This document shows positions 2,836-52,332 of a stretch of DNA of 64,000 nucleotides, one piece after another. Numbering within the stretch: position 1 is the stretch's first letter; every line of letters starts with the position of its first letter. The translations under genes and the position numbers were made by a program. A model generated the notes under the pieces. The model searched no databases, was not told where the DNA came from, and saw only the letters and a list, made by a program, of their open reading frames with translations. Source of the DNA: Hyalella azteca (taxonomy: Eukaryota; Arthropoda; Malacostraca; Amphipoda; Hyalellidae); contig NW_025936579.1 of the NCBI RefSeq assembly GCF_000764305.2, positions 64,769 through 128,768 on the forward strand. The letters run 5' to 3'.

Positions 2836-4265
2836 ACTTCTAAAACGTTCTTGAATTTGCAATTTTGAAGCTAAATGCTCTTCTGTCTTTTAAATTGTTG
2901 TTCCCGTACTGCAAATTACTGCGCATGATACAGGTTTATAATTGATTATTCTAATCCCATGCTAATTTGGTCTGCAGCTGGCTGTTGCTCTTATCCATGT
3001 TAATGCTCCGACAGCTTAGCTTTTTCTAATGCATATCTCTAAGAATAAACATTGTTTGAATTTACTTCAAAGTCCGCAGCCTTTCTAAAATACTGCGGCG
3101 CAACTCTAATCCCCATTTGTCTAAGCTATTATGCAAATGTTGCAGTGTTCTGTTTAAACTCTTCATGGCTTATCTGTACCTTGCTACGTGACCTCGCAGA
3201 CATTTTTTCTTATGAATGCGAATTTTAAGATGGCGTCATCACCATCGCACTCGGCGCAGAAGTTATCTGGCCTGAGCACAGTTATGAGCGTTTGGTATCC
3301 TGCTTGGTATTCCTGTGGGCTGTGCAGGTTCAGAGCCTTAGTCCAAATTAATCAAGGAAAAAACTTGATTCAGGGCATTAATGGAAGGCGTGTATTAGAC
3401 ACCGGACTAAGCAGAGATGGTTGCTGAGAACAAACGAAAAAACGCTCAACCTGACGGATTTGAGCGAAGTTTGTTTTTGCTCGCTAATTTTCTTGCTTCG
3501 CGCGCGCATTCTGCGTGAATTGTCGTAGCTAATGATACGACGATGGTAACTTTTCACCTGGCATCTGAAGTTGATATAATGTAGATTAAACTTAATTAAC
3601 TATAGTAATAAACGATAATTTCAGTGAATTTTGATTGGAGTTGTAGTTGGTTGTGTAGAGTTGGCAATAACGAGCTTAGTGACGGTTACTGAATTGTATT
3701 GATTTATTTACGAAGTGAATTACGAAGTGAAAGTATTTCCATATGGCATTCATTGTTTAAGCTTTAGTAGGTACCTTTCCACATTTGGTTACTTAAGATT
3801 AAAGCTCGGTAACCTGGAGTTATGGTTGGCAACATGAATGGCAACTTTTGTCAGGTTATAACCTTTTCTGTATGTAGATTGCCGAAAAACTTCCACTTTT
3901 ATGGAGTTGCTGCGCTAGAATATTTTCTGAGCAGTTTTCTGAGTATTAAAATGAAGCCAATAACTAACTAGTCGACATTTCTGCACATCTAAATTATGAT
4001 GAAATTTCATTACCATCAACCATTGTGGTAAACAAGAAAACAACCACGTATACAAATTCGTATGTATGATTAACTCTAGGATGCTTGTTTGAGATGACGA
4101 TATTTTATTTAGATCTTTTTATTTCGAGTAACCAGATACATTTATTTGTCAGTATTTCCGTCCGCAGTGGCTGTAATGGCGCGTAATGGTTCTCTATCCG
4201 GCAATAACGAAGTTAACAAGGATAAATAATAACAACACATGGAAAGATTTAACCTATATTTTAAA
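2836..4265. other. Non-coding stretch, nothing recognised
   Basis: AT-rich with scattered GC-balanced patches, for example about 3060-3540. The only frame above 75 codons, at 3188-3427 on the plus strand, has no recognisable domain, and I do not call it a gene. Confidence 0.5.
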
Positions 4266-6780: not shown

Positions 6781-6910
6781 TTGAAGGACCTTCTCACTCA
6801 TGCAAATTTTAAAAGCCCATCCACTGCCAGTGCAAGTGGTGGATCCACTGCCAGTGCATTACCAGTGCAAAATCCAAGCATTTTCGTTGATGTAACTTCG
6901 CCTGAAATTT

Positions 6911-7346
6911 GTTTAAATGCTAGCTGTGTACTTTTTGAATTGCAGCACGCCAAAAATATGTTTAAATGCTTGCTATGTACTTTTTGATTTGCAGCACTCC
7001 TACTGTAAAATACGTTTAAATGCTAGCTGTGTACTTTTTGAATTGCAGCACGCCAAAAATATGTTTAAATGCTAGCTATGTACTTTTTGATTTGCAGCAC
7101 GCCTAAAATACGTTTAAATGCTAGCTATGTACTTTTTGATTCGCAGCACGCCTAAAATACGTTTAAATGCTCGCTATGTACTTATTAATTGGCAGCACGC
7201 CTAAAATATGTTTAAATGCTAGCTATGTACTTTTTGATTTGCAGCACGCCTAAAATATGTTTAAATGCTCGCTATGTACTTTTTGATTTGCAGCACACCT
7301 AAAATATGTTTAAATGCTAGCTATGTACTTTTTGATTTGCAGCACC
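6911..7346. repeat. 49-bp minisatellite, nine copies
   Basis: Copies of GTTTAAATGCTAGCTATGTA followed by CTTTTTGATTTGCAGCACGC start at 6911, 6960, 7014, 7063, 7112, 7161, 7210, 7259 and 7308. All spacings are 49 bp except one of 54 bp. Most copies differ at a few positions. Every unit carries a pyrimidine-rich run ending in GCAG, which resembles a 3' splice site. Just upstream (about 6815-6875) is a smaller imperfect repeat of ATCCACTGCCAGTGCA. Confidence 0.95.
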
Positions 7347-7490: not shown

Positions 7491-8031
7491 TTAACCCTTT
7501 AGCGGGCAAGCATTGAAATATCCAGAAATTAAAATTTCAGAAACCATTTCAAGAAAGTAAGAAGTATTATACAATATATTTATTTAAATGAATTTTTGCA
7601 AATTTTGCCTATTGAAGGTTTAAATCGCACTTGAAGAATTCAATAAATGCGATCAATACACAAAATTTTTCTTTATAATTAAAATTCAGTTTATGCAAAT
7701 GAAAAATTAGAAACATAAAAATTTAAATTTAATTAAATTTAATCAAGTTGCCAAAATAAATAAAAATATATATTGATACTTCCAAATTTTGAAGAAAATG
7801 CGGAAAGAGCGTCAATTCCATTGTCCGAGTCAAAACCTTCATTTAAATTCTCATATTTCAATTGGTGGACTTTGCAGCTGGTGATGCTATAGATAGAACG
7901 ATGGTCAGATAATTAGTGATTGACTGAGGCATTATAAGGATGCCTCAAAAACAAACAGGAAGCCGTGGTGAGGCTTTTTGTGACGCGATTTTAAGTGATC
8001 ATATATGGTAACTTACCCGTGAAAGGGTTAA
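7491..8031. mobile_element. piggyBac-like non-autonomous element (TTAA-flanked MITE)
   Basis: The stretch is bounded by TTAA at 7491-7494 and TTAA at 8028-8031. Inside these lie terminal inverted repeats: CCCTTTAGCGGGCAAG on the left (7495-7510) and CCCTTTCACGGGTAAG, read from the opposite strand, on the right (8012-8027), matching at 13 of 16 bases. A TTAA target duplication with repeats that begin CCCTTT is characteristic of the piggyBac superfamily. The 533-bp interior is AT-rich and too short for a transposase, and I see no transposase motif, so it would need to have moved in trans. The TIR mismatches suggest an old insertion. Class assignment rests on the ends only. Confidence 0.75.
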
Positions 8032-9081
8032 TGATTGGAAAAAGATTCAGTCGTAGTGCGTTGCTCATTTTTCATTCAGAAAAACGATGTTGTAAAGGCA
8101 GCCTATGTCATTATAAGCACAACATCGACAGGTAAGCAAAATTCATAAAAAGTGATGAAAATAGGTGAGCGACTCTTAGAAGAAAATAACAATGAAGTAC
8201 CTATTTATTAAAAGCACTACAAACATGTTTTTCCAAAGGAACACGGAAGCAATATTGTTAGCTTTTTTCAATTTGGTTGAATTTATTTAATTCTCGACCA
8301 CACTTCCGGAACGAATTGTGTCCCAGATCCGATGTAGCTCGGTACAAGTCAAAAAGCCAAGATCGAGATAATGGAGTTTCATCAGCATTTATATTTACGA
8401 AGAAAAAAGATTTTAAATTTTCGTAAGTCATTAGGATCAGAGCGCTTTAATTAGTGAGGCTTCTCATTAAATTTCTCGTCGGAAGCTGAAGCGTCTTGAG
8501 GCTTCGTCCGAAGTAGAATAGCGAGGACTCTCCAGCCGCGGTATAGGACGCACTTGCCATTTTGTGCGCTTGGCAATGCGAATGAATAGAAAGATTGTAT
8601 CCGAAGATTTTCCTATTCTGAAACTGATATTGTGTTCTTTTTGAGGCTGATGATTATCTCGGGAAAAATTTTTTCACCTATTATAATTATTTTTGCGAGG
8701 AATTATTGATTTTGCGGGCTTTCTGTATTCATTGCCTCGAATTTAAATCATTGTTTGATAAAGAGTGAAGGGATTTTCTGAAAATAAAAATGAACTCATG
8801 CACTGTGTTTAGTGTTTTCTTTTAAGATGAATATATTCTTGATAAATTTATTTTAGTGAGCTATACTTTGAAAGTTTCGAGATTTATTTTTCCATCAGCC
8901 CTTATTTTGGTTAATGGAGCTTTATTTATATTTAATTATATACATATGTGTATTGAGTCTGTATAAACTTTTCAATGTTGCAATCACTCATTAGCAAATG
9001 CTCTGTTGTGGTAATAAATAATCCAAACTAGTGTTATAGAAAGCTTTTCTATTTTTTACAACACTTCTCTTTAACTTCTTC
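8032..9081. other. Non-coding stretch, nothing recognised
   Basis: AT-rich sequence with short open frames only. A GC-balanced patch at about 8500-8590 is the only visible compositional change. Confidence 0.45.
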
Positions 9082-9510
9082 TTGTTTGTTTGTTTGTTTG
9101 TTTGTTTGTCTCTTTGCTACAGATCTTATAATCGATATTTAACACACTGCTACCGGTCTAATCGATCTGAAAATTTGCACACTTTCGTAATGTTGGAAAC
9201 AATGCATGAATCAATTGACAAAATAAATAATTTTGAAAATATTAAAAATTTTATTTTTGATATTAAAAAAATTGAAAAAAATTGTCTGCTACATATCTTG
9301 TAATCAATATTTAACACACTTCTACCTGTCCAATCGATCTGAAATTTTGCATACTTGCGTAAAGTCGGAGACAATGCATGAATCAATTGACAGGATAAAT
9401 AATTTCGAAAATTTTAATTTTTTTTATTTTATAAATAAATTTTAAAAATTATTTTTTTTATATTTGATAATAAAATTAGAAATTCATTGTACATGTGTAG
9501 CATCGGAGAC
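9082..9510. repeat. (TTTG)n-associated repeat, two diverged tandem copies
   Basis: A (TTTG)n microsatellite at about 9084-9110 leads into a segment containing TTTAACACACTGCTACC, GATCTGAAAATTTGCA and CAATGCATGAATCAATTGAC. This segment recurs about 175 bp downstream (9290-9400) with scattered differences. The architecture of a GTTT run followed by a GATCTGAAATT motif is the same as in the nested palindrome at 29.7-31.7 kb. The ATGTGTAGCA-CGGA motif at about 9492 also resembles ATGTGTAGCAACGGA at about 29998. The two loci may carry related repeats. Confidence 0.7.
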
Positions 9511-19011: not shown

Positions 19012-19535
19012 TTTTCCCATCCTTGTTGAGCTTGTATGTTCGTTTCAACTCTATATAGGATAGTAGGATAGTAACTGTGTTTTTTTCATTGATACGTTTG
19101 AAGTTTCTGAAGCCGTGACTTTAAACAGCTTTTATTCAAAGCCTGTTAGCGTGCCATCTGTTGACCGTCTGCATTGAAAAAAGTCGCTATACTTTTTTTT
19201 ACTCCAGGTTGGCTATTCATTTAAATTTATTAATCTTTGCTGTTTTAATTTTTCAGTGGGTTGCCTGTTCGTGAACAAATTCAGGGAAGATTTATCCCAA
19301 AATTTAATTTATATCTATATAAATAGCCCTCTGCTGCATCAGAAGTCGTGTATTTTTTCCCAACAACAAACAAAGCAAACAAAACTCGCAGTTAGTTGCC
19401 CTTCAAGGGAAAGTTTTCATAAAGCTAATCTCGAGCTTCTGACACGTGCTGCACCATCAGTTGCCCTACCGCCTCCGTAAAGATATTTCCACAAGGCACT
19501 TGACATTGGAACAAAAGTTCATTGAATTGGGTTTG

Positions 19536-19864
19536 AACGAAATCAACTCGTAATAACATTGTTTCAACGAAATCAACTCGTAATCAACGTTGTTCGAACG
19601 AAATCAACTCGCAATCAACGTTGTTTTACTGAAATCAACTCGTAATCAACATTGTTTCAACGAAATCAACACGTAATCAACGTTGTTTCAACAAAATCAA
19701 CACCTAATCAACGTTGTTTGAACGAAATCATCTCGCAATCAAGGACGTTTTACTGAAATCAAGTCGTAATCAACGTTGTTTTGACAAAATTCAACTCGCA
19801 ATCAACGTTGTTTTACTGAAATAAACTCTTAATCAACATTGTTTCAACGAAATCAACTCGTCAT
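19536..19864. repeat. 31-bp minisatellite, about ten to eleven copies
   Basis: The unit is GAAATCAACTCGTAATCAAC plus GTTGTTTCAAC. Copies vary (CACGTAATC, CTCGCAATC, TTTTACTGAA), and the array ends in CGTCATCTACG near 19870. It is non-coding. Confidence 0.9.
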
Positions 19865-19977
19865 CTACGTTTCAGCCTCGTTTGCCTGAAGGTTGCCATA
19901 CTTTTTGGCATTTCTCCGCCACCGCTTCAGGTCTGTGGTCTGCTCTGCTGAGGTCACCTAGACTGAGTTTAGTGCCA

Positions 19978-25748: not shown

Positions 25749-26035
25749 TGAAACTCGTCAGCGCTAGCGGGTGGAGTGTAAAATTATTGCCGGGCATAAA
25801 CTACGGCAAGAAGCCTAACTAAGTGTGATGAGAGTTAGTGTTAGGCGTTTGTTGAACATTGCATATCCGTACTTGAATAATCATCGTTCATAAATGGTTC
25901 TAATGTTGCAAATTATAATTTAGTGGATGGTTATAATCAATTAGATACGAAAGCAGTTGTTGTTGATTGGTCACTTATGACACTATTATACTTAGCTAAC
26001 TGAAAGGTATGCTCACATGAAATATATTAAAAAAT

Positions 26036-26172
26036 ATAACTCAGTACGCACTGCAGTGAGTGACAGAGAGCGCATTTTCTCAAAATCGACGAAAACGTGA
26101 AGTCACGGACGGACGGACATGACGAGCACAATGGGGCATTTTTTCCATAAATGAGAAAATGCGCCAAAAATA
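26036..26172 (+). mobile_element. MITE copy (CATTTATG family), left end missing
   Basis: AATATAACTCAGTACGCACT, CAGTGAGTGACAGAGAG and GGACGGACGGACATGACGAG are followed by the right terminal repeat CATAAATGAGAAAATGC. This matches the complete copy at 28146-28310 along its length, except that the left terminal inverted repeat is absent. Confidence 0.8.
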
Positions 26173-28145: not shown

Positions 28146-28310
28146 TTTTTAGCGCGTTTTCTCATTTATGAAAAAAATATAACTCAGTACTCACTGCAGT
28201 GAGTGACAGAGAGTACATTTTCCCGTCGACGAAAATGTGAAGCTACGGACGGACGGACATGGCGAGCACAATAGCGCCTTTTTTCCATAAATGAGAAAAT
28301 GCTCTAAAAA
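28146..28310 (+). mobile_element. Complete MITE (CATTTATG family) with ~25-bp inverted ends
   Basis: The left end, TTTTTAGCGCGTTTTCTCAT then TTATG (28146-28170), is mirrored at the right end by CATAAATGAGAAAATGC and then TCTAAAAA (28287-28310), with about two mismatches. The total is about 165 bp with no coding capacity. Inside is a perfect 16-bp palindrome, ACTCACTGCAGTGAGT (28189-28204), and a GGACGGACGGACATG motif. Two other copies lie at 26.04-26.17 kb and, inverted, directly downstream. Confidence 0.85.
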
Positions 28311-28430
28311 GGCGCTTATATGTGCTCGACATGTCCGTCCACCGTCCGTGACTTCGGGGTGAGAGAGCACGAGAAAATGAGCTCTCCGTCACTCACTACA
28401 GTGAGAACTGATCTAATTTTTTTCTCTTTA
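28311..28430 (-). mobile_element. MITE copy (CATTTATG family), inverted, abutting the complete copy
   Basis: Read from the opposite strand, this segment gives the MITE interior: TCTCACTGTAGTGAGTGACG, then GGACGGACATGTCGAGCACA. It lacks a clear outer terminal repeat. It joins the previous copy tail to tail, so transcripts across 28170-28430 could fold into an imperfect hairpin. Confidence 0.75.
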
Positions 28431-29657: not shown

Positions 29658-31761
29658 ATTTTTAACACGTTTTTCTTAGCTTAGCTTCGCGTTTGTTTGT
29701 TTGTTTGTTTGTTTATTTGTTTGTTTGTTTGTTTGTTGTTAATATTGACAACGAAAATTAGCCTACTTCTGATTGCTCTAGAGATCTGAAATTCAACATG
29801 CAGGCTATTTTCGCCTAACAATTTCAGATAAAATCATAAAAACTAGCAATTAGAGACCAAAATTAGCTTAATTGAGTAAAGTATATTTATATAGTATATA
29901 TATAGTATGACGTGCGGGCGCTGACGTTATAGACGAGCATGCGCTGACGCTTCGTATCATCGATACGCATCGAACTTTTTAAAAACCACGTTTTTCATGT
30001 GTAGCAACGGACTAAAAAGGAGAAAATAAAATACTTGAAAAAATACTTTTTAAAAAAACACGTTTTTCTTTTGGACTAAAAAGTAGAAAATAAATTATGG
30101 CTTGCCCCAAAAAACGTGGGTCGGGCTGTACGTTCACCATCAAATTTCCGAAATTTAAGTGTTGTATGCTTTTCGCTTTAATCATAAATCTGCCCGACAC
30201 ACGTTTTTTTGGGGCGAACCATAATTTATTTTCTACTTTTTAGTCCACAAGAAAAACGATTAAGACTTGATTAAGTATGAGTTGACGTACGTATTGATGA
30301 TACGCAGCGTTAGCGCCTGCTCGTCTATAACGTGAGCGCCCGCACGTCATACTATATATATACTATATATATATACTTTACTCAAAAAAACTAATTTAGG
30401 TCTCTAATTACTAGTTTTTATGATTGTATCTGAAATTGTTAGGCGAAAATAGCCTGCATGTCGAATTTCAGATCTCTAGAACAATCAGAAGTGGGCTAAT
30501 TTTCGTTTTCAATGTTAACAACAAACAAACAAACAAACAAACGCGAAGCTAAGCTAAGAAAAACGTGTTAAATAAAATACTTAAATTTTTTTTAAATAAA
30601 CACGTTTTTCTTTTGGACTAAAAAGTAGAAAATAAATTATGGCTTGCCCCAAAAAACGTGTGTCGGGCAGATTTATGATTAAAGCGAAAAACACACAACA
30701 CACGAACTTTGGAAATTTGATGGTGAAGGTACAGCCCGAAATCATAAATCTGCCCGACACACGTTTTTTGGGGCAAGCCATAATTTATTTTCTACTTTTT
30801 AGTCCAAAAGAAAAACGTGTTTATTTAAAAAAAATTTAAGTATTTTATTTAACACGTTTTTCTTAGCTTAGCTTCGCGTTTGTTTGTTTGTTTGTTTGTT
30901 GTTAACATTGAAAACGAAAATTAGCCCACTTCTGATTGTTCTAGAGATCTGAAATTCGACATGCAGGCTATTTTCGCCTAACAATTTCAGATACAATCAT
31001 AAAAACTAGTAATTAGAGACCTAAATTAGTTTTTTTGAGTAAAGTATATATATATAGTATATATATAGTATGACGTGCGGGCGCTCACGTTATAGACGAG
31101 CAGGCGCTAACGCTGCGTATCATCAATACGTACGTCAACTCATACTTAATCAAGTCTTAATCGTTTTTCTTGTGGACTAAAAAGTAGAAAATAAATTATG
31201 GCTTGCCCCAAAAAACGTGTGTCGGGCAGATTTATGATTAAAGCGAAAAGCACACAACACACGAACTTTGGAAATTTGATGGTGAAGGTACAGCCCGACC
31301 CACGTTTTTTGGGGCAAGCCATAATTTATTTTCTACTTTTTAGTCCAAAAGAAAAACGTGTTTTTTTAAAAAGTATTTTTTCAAGTATTTTATTTTCTCC
31401 TTTTTAGTCCGTTGCTACACATGAAAAACGTGGTTTTTAAAAAGTTCGATGCGTATCGATGATACGAAGCGTCAGCGCATGCTCGTCTATAACGTCAGCG
31501 CCCGCACGTCATACTATATATATACTATATAAATATACTTTACTCAATTAAGCTAATTTTGGTCTCTAATTGCTAGTTTTTATGATTTTATCTGAAATTG
31601 TTAGGCGAAAATAGCCTGCATGTTGAATTTCAGATCTCTAGAGCAATCAGAAGTAGGCTAATTTTCGTTGTCAATATTAACAACAAACAAACAAACAAAC
31701 AAATAAACAAACAAACAAACAAACAAACGCGAAGCTAAGCTAAGAAAAACGTGTTAAAAAA
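29658..31761. repeat. Nested giant palindrome ('palindrome of palindromes')
   Basis: The left arm (29658-30680) is the near-exact reverse complement of the right arm (30740-31761), symmetric about position 30710 with a 59-bp spacer. Each arm is itself a diverged inverted pair, giving four alternately oriented flank units around hairpin cores at about 30059-30258, 30600-30820 and 31160-31360. A flank unit runs TTAACACGTTTTTCTTAGC, TTCGCG, (GTTT)n, GATCTGAAATTC, AGGCTATTTTCGCCTAACAA, a TATATA-rich block and ATGACGTGCGGGCGCTGACG. The outer arms agree even in the interrupted microsatellite (six GTTT, one ATTT, four GTTT). There is no transposase gene. The short frames starting MACPKKR are present on both strands because of the symmetry, and I do not call them genes. 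It resembles a foldback-type element cluster or a very recent inverted duplication. Confidence 0.92.
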
Positions 31762-32003
31762 CTTTTTAAAAGACCACGTTTTTCTTGTGGACTAAAAAGT
31801 AGAAAATAAATTATGGTTCGCCCCAAAAAAACGTGGGTCGGGCTGTACGTTCACCATCAAATTTCCGAAATTTAAGTGTTGTATGCTTTTCGCTTTAATC
31901 ATAAATCTGCCCGACACACGTTTTTTTGGGGCGAACCATAATTTATTTTCTACTTTTTAGTCCACAAGAAAAACGTGGTCTTTTAAAAAGTTTTTTAAGT
32001 ATT
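31756..32003. repeat. Stand-alone hairpin core, same family as the palindrome cores
   Basis: The left arm contains CCACGTTTTTCTTGTGGACT, AAAAAGTAGAAAATAAATTA and CGCCCCAAAAAAACGTGGGT. It is mirrored after a loop of about 65 bases by the reverse complement, ending ...AAGAAAAACGTGGTCTTTTA. Arms are about 85-90 bp and nearly perfect. The loop (CACCATCAAATTTCCGAAAT and so on) lies in the same orientation as in the core at 30.06-30.26 kb. This suggests that the hairpin core is the elementary unit and the large palindrome is built from it. Confidence 0.88.
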
Positions 32004-32895
32004 TTATACCGTATTATTGACATTGAATTGAAAATCACATATTTTTCTTACAGAATCAACACTTCAATATCAACCGTCAAAGCAGCTGATCTGAAAATTC
32101 GATATTATCAGTGATATTTTTTCCAATTTTTAAAATATAATGATCGTCGTTGAATGTCTATAGTAAAGTTCACTTCCGAAGATCACATCCGAATTACAGT
32201 TTCTTGCTCGATACACATTACAAACAAATTATTTATTTCAGACGAGACACTAATATCGTTTTGAATTTTTTTTGTTAGCGATATAAAGCAGAAATCTAAT
32301 ATACGATTAGAGTTTTTCTTTGTACTTTTTATGTAATGTTTTAAGCATGATCCATTCGATGTAGAAGGTGCATTTGATTTTACCTTCTATTCTTATCTAC
32401 ACGTGCTCATTGTATGGAAATTTAACGAGAAAACTGCTGACTAAAGAGTATTTAGTATTTACTTTGAAGAGATCGATTACTTGTAGACTAGTTGCCTCTA
32501 TTTCGATCTGAAAGTAGACTTGTCAACTCATACTAAAATTAGAAACTTAATTTGACTGTTGATATCCTGTCGATATCAAGCTGTCCTGAGAATCGTGCTA
32601 TTTGGTTTGATTGCACAAAGTGTGGTCAAATATTATTTAAATTAAAATTTGACAACATTAATCAGGGCAGTGCGCAAAACTTCAACATGATGGAGATGTG
32701 GAAAAATTTACGCTCAGGCTCATATTTTATTCTGCCTGCTGAAATTTCGTCTGTACTTAGCAGTCGACCTCCGTGTTGAAGGTCGTTGGACTTTTGGGAA
32801 ATGACAAAATGACATTTGTTTAAAATATTGCTACAATCTTTGCTAGTAATCGTTCGTAAGATTGAATTATTTTTTGGTGACCGATATTGGTGAGT
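32004..32895. other. AT-rich non-coding stretch, nothing recognised
   Basis: The 75-codon frame at 32552-32779 has no recognisable domain. Confidence 0.45.
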
Positions 32896-33920: not shown

Positions 33921-33924
33921 AAAT

Positions 33925-34520
33925 GTACCACAGATGGTGGTACAAGAGGAGGGTGTACCACAGAAGATGTGGTGCAAGAGTAGTGTGTACCACAGAAGAT
34001 GTGGTGCAAGAGTAGTGTGTACCACAGAAGATGTGGTGCAAGAGTAGCGTGTACCACAGAAGATGTGGTACAAGAGAAGCGTGTACCACAGAAGATGTGT
34101 TACAAGAGTAGTGTGTACCACAGAAGATGTGGTACAAGAGTAGCGTGTACCACAGAAGGTGTGGTGCAAAGGTTGGGTGTACCATAGAAAGTTTGGTATA
34201 CAAGACTAGGTTTACCGTAGAAGGTGTGGTATAATTAAGTGTAGGGTTTACCACAGAACATGTGGTGTAGTAGTTGGGTGTATCACAGAAATTGTGGTAC
34301 ACAAGTAGGGTGTACCACAGAAGGTGTGGTACATGTGTTGAAAGTTCCACAGAAGGTGCGGTACATGAGTTGGATGTACCACGGAATCTGTTGTACTATA
34401 ATTGGATATACCACAGAGGGTGTGGTACAAGTGTTGGATGTACCACGGAAGGAGTGGTACTGCATGTAATTGGATGTACCACAGAAGATGTGGTACAAGT
34501 GTTGGATGTACCTCAATTGT
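33925..34520. repeat. 32-bp array of ~19 units, most with a hairpin
   Basis: The consensus unit is GTACCACAGAAGATGTGGTA plus CAAGAGTAGTGT. Starts fall at 33925, 33955, 33987, 34019, 34051, 34083, 34115, 34147, 34179, 34211, 34248, 34280, 34312, 34344, 34376, 34408, 34440, 34476 and 34508. Spacing is exactly 32 bp almost throughout, with 30, 37 and 36 as exceptions. Within a unit, GTACCACA and TGTGGTAC form an 8-bp stem around a 5-base loop, followed by a 10-12-base spacer that varies more. The last unit is truncated. Since 32 is not a multiple of three, the long-looking frames on both strands (up to 152 codons) are by-products. Despite the repeat-spacer look, this is not CRISPR: the spacers are too short and repetitive. 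Confidence 0.95.
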
Positions 34521-42249: not shown

Positions 42250-42605
42250 GCTGGAGAGCAGCTTCGTGACTCGTCTGCCAGGCCTGACCTCTTCCATGAC
42301 TTAGCAACCAGCTTCCTGACTCGCCTGCCAGACCTGACCTCTTCCATGGCTTAGCAACCAACTTCCTGACTCGCCTGCTAGACCTGACCTTTTCCATGGC
42401 TTAGCAACCAACTTCCTGACTCGCCTGCCAGACCTGACCTCTTCCATGGCTTAGCAACCAACTTCCTGACTCGCCTGCCAGACCTGACCTCTTCCATGGC
42501 TTAGCAACCAACTTCCTGACTCGCCTGCCTGACCAGACCTCTTCCATGGCTTAGCAACCAACTTCCTGACTCGTCTGCCAGACCTGACCTCTTCCAAGGC
42601 TCGCA
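42250..42605. repeat. 50-bp minisatellite, about seven copies, exact period
   Basis: The unit is TTAGCAACCAACTTCCTGAC, TCGCCTGCCAGACCTGACCT and CTTCCATGGC. TTAGCAACCA occurs at 42301, 42351, 42401, 42451, 42501 and 42551, exactly 50 bp apart, with very few substitutions, so the array is young. Partial units flank it on both sides. Minus-strand frames (WLLSHGRG-like) are by-products. Confidence 0.95.
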
Positions 42606-42912
42606 GGTCTCGGGTCTTTCATTTCCATCGATCTGCGTAGCGGTCATCAGTTTTTTTGGTGAATTGGTTCGTGTTCTAATATTCAATTATTTTTTTGCTA
42701 CTTAATGTGAATAAATTTAGATGTAACAAAATATTCATGAACCTGATTTGCACCTACCTAATTTTTAACACGGAAGTGACCCGTTTATAACCGAAAATTT
42801 TGACCATTCTGATGGCGAACCCTTTTACTAAATTGATTGTGATCTACTTCAAGGAAATTTTGAGTCGGAAGACTGATATTTGATTTTGACGACTTACTTG
42901 AGTCGGAAGACT
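42606..42912. other. Non-coding spacer before the LINE
   Basis: TTGAGTCGGAAGACTG occurs at about 42859 and again at about 42899, ending next to the point where LINE coding sequence begins. Nothing else is seen. Confidence 0.5.
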
Positions 42913-42920
42913 GTAAGGTA

Positions 42921-43568
42921 ATGGAATCTGTTGTGAGGGATAGGATAATCGATCACTTGACTGTTCAACATCTATCAGACTTTCAACATGGCTTTATTGC
43001 CGGTAGATCCTACAGCACTAACCTCTTGTCTACGTCGAACGATTGGACTCGCCTGCTGGAAGGAAAGGAGCCAGTGGATGCAGTATACCTCGATTTCGCA
43101 AAGGCATCTGACTGTGTCCGTGACAGTGTTCTGTTACGTAAAGGGAAGTTCTTGGGAATAGAGGGAAACGTACTCCAATGGATCAGAGATTTTCTAGTAG
43201 GTAGACGACAACGTGTCAGTATTAACAGAACGGTGTCAGACTGGGCATCAGTGAGCAGTGGCGTGCCACAAGGAAGCGTTCTTGGGCCTATTTCGTTCGT
43301 TGCTTATATAAACGATCTGCCAGGAGCAGTGTCCAGCGTGTGCTCCATGTATGCCGACGACACGAAAGTTTCTAATACAGTGAAGGATGCGTCAAATAAA
43401 GCGCAATTGCAAGATGATCTTGACAGCTTAGTTAACTGGGCTGATACGTGGCAGCTACGCTTTAATGCTGACAAGTGTAGAGTACTTTTTCTTGGAAAGA
43501 ACAATGAACAGCAAGATTACAGTATGAGAAGACATGGCTTGCAACGAGAGAGTAATTTAAGATTATGA
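42921..43568 (+). pseudogene. LINE reverse transcriptase, partial (215 residues)
   Basis: This is the only long frame with clear homology in the window. Motifs in order: F.HGFIAGRSYSTNL at residues about 22-35; catalytic motif A VYLDFAKASD at about 55-64, with the conserved Phe of AFD changed to Ser; the fingers/palm segment ...WIRDFLVGRRQRVSIN at about 87-102; motif B SGVPQGSVLGP at 113-123; motif C YADD at 144-147; and a thumb segment NWADTWQLRFNADKC at about 172-186. All three catalytic aspartates of the RT are present. The N-terminal endonuclease and fingers are missing, and the start codon used here is simply the first Met in the remaining frame. The frame ends soon after the thumb because of an internal deletion. 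It is a fossil of a mobile element, not a host gene. Confidence 0.93.
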
Positions 43569-51905: not shown

Positions 51906-52332
51906 TGATCTCGTTGTGTTGTTGCTGCTGCCGCAAAGGTAAGACTTGTGTGCCGTTGTGTTGTTGCTGCTGCAGCAAAGGTAAGACTTGTGTGCCGTTG
52001 TGTTGTTGCTGCTCCAGCAAAGGTAAGACTTGTGTGCCGTTGTGTTGTTGCTGCTGCCGCAAAGGTAAAACTTGTGTGCCGTTGTGTTGTTGCCGCTGCC
52101 GCAAAGGTAAGACTTGTGTGCCGTTGTGTTGTTGCTGCTGCAGCAAATGTGAGACATGTGTGCCGTTGTGTTGTTGCTGCTGCAGCAAAGGTAAGACTTT
52201 GGTGCAGTTACAGACGCTGCTGATATTGCTGCATCCTGAGGACGATCCCGACGGCAATTTCGTTCGAGCTCCAGCTGGCTTCCGTTCTGGTCTCACTCCA
52301 TCATAGGGGAAACAAGAAACTAACAACAGCAT
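51865..52332 (-). CDS. 155-codon frame through the 42-bp array: possible repeat protein
   Basis: The minus-strand frame starts MLLLVSCFPYDGV, with AAAA just before the ATG. About 46 non-repetitive residues (including SGSSSGCSNISSVCNCTKV) are followed by about six to seven copies of the 14-residue unit QQQQHNGTQVLPLR. Each unit carries a poly-Gln run and an NGT sequon. The N-terminus is weakly hydrophobic but not a convincing signal peptide. The plus strand offers competing frames with CCCCCRKGKTCVPL repeats. The array alone explains the openness, and only the 46-residue head argues for coding. I recognise no family. Confidence 0.2.
   Translation of the reverse strand: MLLLVSCFPYDGVRPERKPAGARTKLPSGSSSGCSNISSVCNCTKVLPLLQQQQHNGTHVSHLLQQQQHNGTQVLPLRQRQQHNGTQVLPLRQQQQHNGTQVLPLLEQQQHNGTQVLPLLQQQQHNGTQVLPLRQQQQHNEINAEPASIPSVLNT
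51911..52206. repeat. 42-bp minisatellite, seven copies
   Basis: The unit is GTGTGCCGTTGTGTTGTTGC followed by TGCTGCCGCAAAGGTAAGAC and TT. GT of the internal GTAAGA motif falls at 51939, 51981, 52023, 52065, 52107, 52149 and 52191, exactly 42 bp apart. Since 42 is a multiple of three and the unit lacks stops in several frames, both strands stay open. Five of the seven units carry an identical AAAGGTAAGA, a very good 5' splice-site match; one has GTAAAA and one is degenerate. Confidence 0.95.

What the first reader, a model, noticed from the sequence alone, without database searches (positions are those of the whole stretch)
29658..31761. Nested 2.1-kb palindrome: four alternately oriented flanks around hairpin cores
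Seen in the sequence: two ~1-kb arms are near-exact reverse complements about position 30710, with a 59-bp spacer. Each arm is itself an older, diverged inverted pair centred on a hairpin core. This two-level symmetry (inner level old and diverged, outer level nearly identical) is unusual. It suggests repeated rounds of inverted duplication of one foldback unit, or replication by a hairpin intermediate. Any transcript would form ~1 kb of dsRNA, like hairpin-RNA loci that feed endogenous siRNA in arthropods. That role is inference.
Basis: partly seen in the sequence, partly recalled or inferred. Interest (0 to 1): 0.78.

Follow-up and report, generated by a model that had tools for sequence, protein, structure and literature searches.

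The report
Palindromic array of Helitron-type jumping genes
The 2.1-kb palindrome is real; it is best read as a local pile-up of several copies of one dispersed, gene-less jumping element of the rolling-circle (Helitron) type that carries a mirror image of its own tail, and nothing seen here shows a small-RNA role.

Summary
The palindrome is confirmed. Arms 29659-30680 and 30740-31761 match at 1012 of 1021 aligned positions around a 59-bp spacer. All 10 internal differences lie in 87 bp of the hairpin cores, none in the other ~934 bp. The array is longer than reported: F C F' C F C F' C, to about 32007.

In its own genome (519 Mb) the same repeat gives 1216 first-look candidates, 40 scored; I fetched 38 other loci. 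The ~620-bp unit has a 14-bp asymmetric inverted repeat, a (GTTT)n run and a 3' end mirrored into a 101-bp-arm hairpin. I found no target-site duplication and T-rich sites; younger copies sit in the T-run of older ones. A decayed 4.8-kb relative has both ends around a Helitron Rep domain (E 4.8e-26) and weak PIF1-like pieces. I read it as a non-autonomous Helitron2/HINE-type family.

The "older, diverged" inner pair is not a local duplication: 39 and 40 of 43 other copies are closer to its two members than these are to each other. Only the outer inverted duplication looks recent. An siRNA role is untested.

The parts
29659..30258 (+). Copy 1 (+): 5' end, (GTTT)n, F1, inner stretch and core hairpin C1; consensus positions 1-585; lacks the last ~35 bp of the 3' end
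   Evidence: 89% to consensus; 5' end TTTTTAACACGTTTTTCTTAGC as in other copies
30222..30572 (-). Copy 2 (-): F2' flank, consensus 362-3; overlaps copy 1 by 37 bp in the right arm of C1
   Evidence: inner tail of type B; groups with the B clade
30571..30850 (-). Core C2, consensus 620-353: hairpin with 3'-end sequence on both sides, each abutting the 5' end of a neighbouring copy; holds the centre of the outer palindrome
30681..30739 (.). 59-bp spacer at the centre of the outer palindrome, in the loop of C2
30848..31198 (+). F3, mirror copy of F2' (consensus 3-362)
31162..31760 (-). C3 and F4', mirror copy of C1 and F1 (consensus 585-1)
31756..32007 (+). Core C4 with 3' end (consensus 368-619), outside the finding's stated end
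30132..30218 (.). Stretch that holds all 10 internal arm-to-arm differences; here C1 reads like C4, and C3 like C2 (conversion-like tract)

Best explanation
The locus is a composite array of copies of a dispersed, non-autonomous rolling-circle transposon family of the Helitron2/HINE type. SHOWN: the unit (~620 bp) starts TTTTTAACACGTTTTTCTTAGC, carries the 14 bp AACACGTTTTTCTT again, inverted, 31 bp inside its 3' end, ends AAGTATTTTATT, and holds an inverted copy of its own last 101 bp, so its 3' end is a large hairpin (the core). Sampled copies lie in T-rich places without a target-site duplication, some inside one another, and a decayed coding relative has the same ends around a Rep domain and weak helicase pieces. 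In the window, two copies of different lineages (F1 and F2') share one hairpin in opposite orientation; that block plus half of a neighbouring core stands a second time in inverted orientation, with the turning point in the loop of core C2. INFERRED: the units moved by Rep nicking and copying of one strand; the opposite-orientation joint arose by recombination or template switching between homologous hairpin arms; the outer inverted duplication arose by a replication template switch at a hairpin; one core was then overwritten from another (gene conversion). It most likely does nothing for the host.
For: 1216 first-look candidates in the own genome, 40 scored. 14-bp asymmetric inverted repeat, and a mirrored 3' end of 101 bp with 1 mismatch, in a consensus of 27 copies. 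No target-site duplication in 29 solo copies (mean longest shared word 3.86 bp against 3.47 in shuffled pairs); the base after the unit is T in 27 of 29. Insertion of one copy in another at AACACGTTTTT^CTTA, read on both sides in L011, L017 and L046. L060: family 5' end, Helitron_like_N 4.8e-26, PIF1-like pieces below cut-off, family 3' end within 4.8 kb. L059: a second Rep gene with ends of the same kind, its named relatives mostly insects and spiders. F1 and F2' closer to other copies than to each other. Arms identical outside one 87-bp tract.
Against: Of 19 Rep matches only two were read with wide flanks; the one with both family ends is decayed. Helicase pieces are below Pfam's cut-off. 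The shared-word mean is slightly above its control. The array's own right-hand neighbour base is A, not T. The AT-rich 3' palindrome may be composition. The 3' hairpin is far larger than those in the HINE passages read. Tail type and F tree agree only in part: 3 of 9 non-window members of the B clade carry the A1 tail, and two B-tailed copies fall outside it. Rolling-circle movement was not observed. An assembly error is not excluded.
Confidence: 0.85

Rival explanations
1. A true foldback transposon (FB/Galileo/Tetris kind): the F-C-F' block is one element with long terminal inverted repeats, moved by a cut-and-paste transposase.
For: F-C-F' blocks are bounded by TTAA on both sides. L010 shows another F-C-F' block that shares one hairpin. 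Tetris also shares a stretch between outer and inner repeats (passages).
Against: 31 of the 38 fetched loci were usable as solo F-C units with asymmetric ends; flank copies on opposite strands occur in 2 of 38, and of these only L010 shares one hairpin. TTAA is part of the usual 5' end. No target-site duplication in 29 solo copies. A Helitron Rep gene lies between the same ends.
Confidence: 0.05
2. A hairpin-RNA locus: the array is transcribed and its ~1-kb duplex is cut into siRNAs that control the family or a host gene.
For: The array folds onto itself (MFE -1888 kcal/mol, no shuffled control); the single core has z -13.8.
Against: No transcript or small-RNA data were available. The structure follows from the history of a transposon family and needs no selection.
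Confidence: 0.07
3. Assembly or library artefact: the palindrome is a folded-back chimeric read or a false join of two family copies.
For: High-copy family in an assembly of 4890 contigs; inverted arms with a short spacer are a known library artefact (recalled).
Against: The arms differ at 10 sites in one tract, where each core matches another core rather than its mirror. Among listed matches of 500 bp or more on other contigs the best identity is 94%, so the arms are not two unrelated copies falsely joined.
Confidence: 0.1

Closest known systems
Helitron2 / FoHeli elements of Fusarium (PMC5148889, passages)
   Same: Asymmetric inverted repeat with the 3' copy ~20-50 bp inside the end; Helitron2 insertion between TTTT and T or C, as at AACACGTTTTT^CTTA here; ATTTT at the 3' end (here within AAGTATTTTATT); self-insertion giving several 5' ends and composite copies.
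   Different: Here the sampled copies are mostly non-coding, the 3' end is mirrored into a 101-bp-arm hairpin, and a near-perfect 1-kb palindrome has formed.
HINE / DINE-1, non-autonomous Helentrons (PMC4067079, section 5 and passages; PMC7492417, passages)
   Same: Subterminal inverted repeats of 11-15 bp, microsatellite on the 5' side, palindrome near the 3' end, insertion in T-rich sites without target-site duplication, dispersed and non-coding.
   Different: The mite HINE 3' palindromes are given as 5-10 bp. No endonuclease piece was found in L060 behind the helicase pieces (frames listed, eight scanned), so the Helentron label is not established.
Tetris, a foldback element of Drosophila virilis (PMC4079207, passages)
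   Same: Long inverted flanks, a shared stretch between modules, array formation.
   Different: Tetris has terminal inverted repeats and target-site duplications of 8-10 bp; in this family the solo copies show neither.

Membership tests
Helitron2/HINE-type rolling-circle element | Asymmetric (subterminal) inverted repeat of ~11-15 bp | tested here: met
   AACACGTTTTTCTT, 14 bp perfect: positions 6-19 of the consensus, and inverted with 31 bp between it and the 3' end
Helitron2/HINE-type rolling-circle element | No target-site duplication; insertion in T-rich sites | tested here: met
   29 solo copies, 2 of 31 dropped as nested; internal pre-insertion site AACACGTTTTT^CTTA, both sides read in L011, L017, L046. 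Empty sites from chimeric flanks were not searched.
Helitron2/HINE-type rolling-circle element | Coding relative with Rep (HUH) and helicase between the same ends | tested here: met
   L060 3544-8366: family ends at 91-100%, PF14214 4.8e-26; helicase only by PIF1 pieces 0.0013 and 0.0077, below cut-off; decayed copy
Helitron2/HINE-type rolling-circle element | Short palindrome near the 3' end | tested here: inconclusive
   TTTTTAAAAA-type AT palindrome in the last ~30 bp of the consensus printed; may be only composition
Helitron2/HINE-type rolling-circle element | Transposition by a single-strand or circular intermediate | not testable with these tools
   Needs experiment
Helentron (endonuclease-bearing) | AP endonuclease fused behind the helicase | tested here: inconclusive
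   None among the L060 frames scanned; decayed copy, no genome-wide search
Helitron1 (canonical) | 5' TC ... CTRR 3', insertion between A and T | tested here: not met
   Ends TTTTTAACACG ... AAGTATTTTATT in the solo copies
Foldback TIR transposon | Long inverted repeats at the very ends and a fixed target-site duplication | tested here: not met
   Solo copies have asymmetric ends and no duplication
Hairpin-RNA / endo-siRNA locus | Small RNAs from both arms | not testable with these tools
   No expression data

The most novel reading that the evidence does not exclude
The mirrored 3' end makes the element two-tailed: Rep can stop at either arm, and the displaced strand can prime its own second strand at the 3' hairpin. 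Transposition would then itself produce head-to-head dimers that share one hairpin (F-C-F'), as in the window and L010. A rolling-circle transposon would be making long palindromes as a product of its own replication, and these would seed further inverted duplication.
Probability: 0.12. Interest if true: 0.6.

Novelty: new variant of a known kind. Interest (0 to 1): 0.36.

Why it matters
It replaces a puzzling locus by a defined repeat family with a coding relative, known ends and a visible habit of inserting into itself. The mirrored 3' terminus, and two cases of inverted copies sharing one hairpin (window, L010), allow a test of whether hairpin-ended rolling-circle elements create palindromes. 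Long palindromes are fragile and can be sources of dsRNA (general knowledge), so such a family could be a recurrent source of both.

Tried and rejected
Rejected: TTAA target-site duplication around F-C-F' (TTAA belongs to the usual 5' end). An 8-bp duplication TATTATTG around the array (seen by eye; solo copies show no duplication). Old local inverted duplication for the inner pair. Known structured RNA (0 Rfam matches at the gathering threshold in the window). Phage or plasmid origin (two 29-bp matches at E 0.2, none). Exact-pattern scans of viral and bacterial collections found nothing (the own genome may be left out there).

Not done, because the genome search answered only twice: genome-wide count of the F2'/C1 joint, copy number by pattern, empty sites from chimeric flanks, COX1 to name the host. 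Weak or failed: the first target-site script anchored the 3' end wrongly in several copies and was replaced. In one search only flank sequences that covered the whole compared region were kept (47, four of them the window's), and the automatic labels of L024 and L042 (A2) are wrong, their tails read B. Ten window reading frames gave no Pfam match over its cut-off, three gave weak ones. The reverse-transcriptase fragment did not name the host. The 38 loci were taken from the best-scoring matches, so they are not a random sample of the family.

Full report
WHAT IS THERE. The finding's palindrome is in the sequence. Two arms of about 1.02 kb, 29659-30680 and 30740-31761, are reverse complements around a 59-bp spacer. 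Aligned, they agree at 1012 of 1021 positions with one internal 1-bp gap and one unmatched outermost base, and the 10 internal differences lie between 30132 and 30218. Outside that stretch there are 0 differences in about 934 bp (95% upper bound 0.3%), and 0 of 200000 random placements are so clustered. In the tract C1 reads like C4, and C3 like C2 but for one base (30105-30258 against 31822-31975 at 99%), which is what gene conversion between cores would leave. Beyond the stated end lies a fourth core, 31756-32007, so the array is F C F' C F C F' C.

THE FAMILY. The own-genome search (518,993,365 bases, 4890 contigs) gave 1216 first-look candidates, of which 40 were scored. I fetched 38 loci besides the window's own contig, chosen from the best matches, and mapped flank and core in each. 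In 31 of the 38 loci a solo unit could be taken: flank F at the 5' side, about 90 bp, then core C at the 3' side. A consensus of 27 of these 31 (L016, L018, L030 and L043, with doubled or neighbouring ends, left out) gives a unit of about 620 bp; the copies are 91-98% identical to it. The usual ends are TTTTTAACACGTTTTTCTTAGC at 5' and AAGTATTTTATT at 3'. The 14 bp AACACGTTTTTCTT stand at positions 6-19 and, inverted, 31 bp inside the 3' end. The last 101 bp are repeated inverted inside the unit with one mismatch, so the core hairpin is the element's own 3' end and its mirror image.

HOW IT MOVES. In 29 solo copies (31 less L016 and L043, which lie in their own family) no target-site duplication is seen: the longest shared word averages 3.86 bp against 3.47 for shuffled pairs; one copy each reaches 7 and 8 bp, lengths also seen in the control. 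The base before AACACG is T in 29 of 29, but those Ts may belong to the element; the base after AAGTATTTTAT is T in 27 of 29. At the window array that base is A. Several loci hold one copy inside another. In L011, L017 and L046 one can read the fragment AACACGTTTTT of an older copy, then a younger copy, then CTTAGC or CTTAAC, the rest of the older one; L020 and L025 show the right-hand joint only. The family consensus thus serves as its own empty site. PMC5148889 (passages) gives TTTT before T or C as the Helitron2 site and describes self-insertion and multiple 5' ends.

CODING RELATIVES. The Helitron_like_N domain has 19 matches in the genome. Of the ten loci returned (1.8-3.4 kb each), two hold family-like sequence, and these two were fetched with wider flanks. 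L060 has the family 5' end at 3544-3913 (93-100%), a Helitron_like_N domain (4.8e-26), two PIF1-like pieces below cut-off (0.0013, 0.0077), and the family 3' end at 7834-8366 (91-93%). L059 carries an open 650-residue Rep frame with a 5' end of the same kind (CACGTTTTTCTTAGC and a GTCT run) and a related 3' end. Of 154 relatives found for that frame, 120 were listed; the best is 61% identical (Polypedilum), and the named ones are mostly insects and spiders, with a few molluscs and a springtail. No endonuclease was seen in the L060 frames scanned, so Helitron2 fits better than Helentron; this rests on one decayed copy.

HISTORY OF THE ARRAY. The inner pair is not an old local duplication. F1 and F2' differ at 17 sites (92.7%), while 39 of 43 other copies are closer to F1, and 40 of 43 closer to F2', than they are to each other. 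In the tree F2'/F3 fall in a clade with support 0.88; F1/F4' fall beside copies of L011, L020 and L015 in a group without support above 0.85. Tail type and tree agree only in part, so copies look mosaic. F1 and F2' overlap in C1 by 37 bp that fit both the 3' arm of one and the inner arm of the other. L010 is a second block of opposite copies sharing one hairpin; the compared parts agree at 150 of 154 bases. The outer duplication then copied F1-C1-F2' and half of C2 in inverted orientation, with the turning point in the loop of C2. The order of events and the mechanism (template switch at a hairpin) are inference.

FUNCTION. The most likely answer is none for the host (inference). The RNA of the whole array would fold onto itself, but no promoter, transcript or small RNA was examined. 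An assembly error is less likely because of the conversion-like tract, but only reads can settle it.

LITERATURE. Read in passages: PMC4067079 (also section 5), PMC5148889, PMC7492417, PMC4079207, PMC3630058. In the listings of three searches (the last showing 8 of 21) I saw no title about palindromic arrays of Helitron2/HINE copies; that is a weak statement.

Noticed in passing
window 42864-43568 (+): Reverse-transcriptase fragment (PF00078, 2.7e-22); best relatives are on short metagenome contigs at about 80% identity.
   Followed up: partly
window 26029-26081, 28172-28226, 28369-28423: Another repeat (CTCAGTAC..CACTGCAGTGAGTGACAGAGAG) in direct and inverted copies just left of the array.
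   Followed up: no
window, e.g. 6899-7345, 19531-19871, 33924-34512, 42262-42601, 51912-52199: Many minisatellite arrays, with units of 31-50 bp in these examples (42 overlapping rows).
   Followed up: no
window 9048-9116: Short stretch (62 bp, 82%) resembling the 5' start of the family plus its GTTT run; mostly the microsatellite.
   Followed up: partly
L052, L053, L054, L057, L058 (own genome): Helitron_like_N matches inside single open frames of 1703-2694 residues, without a family match in the ~3.3 kb returned: perhaps other, larger Helitron-type elements.
   Followed up: no
L010, L016, L018, L025, L030, L039, L046, L060: Doubled 5' ends: a second 5' terminus 11-85 bp downstream of the first, as after self-insertion.
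   Followed up: partly
L060:4530-5190 and 8055-8270: A tandem repeat upstream of the Rep domain (RNLAVESAEGRNSRLEKQRERHQ repeats in one frame) and a tandem AGTCATGCTTGCTAA run inside the core loop.
   Followed up: no
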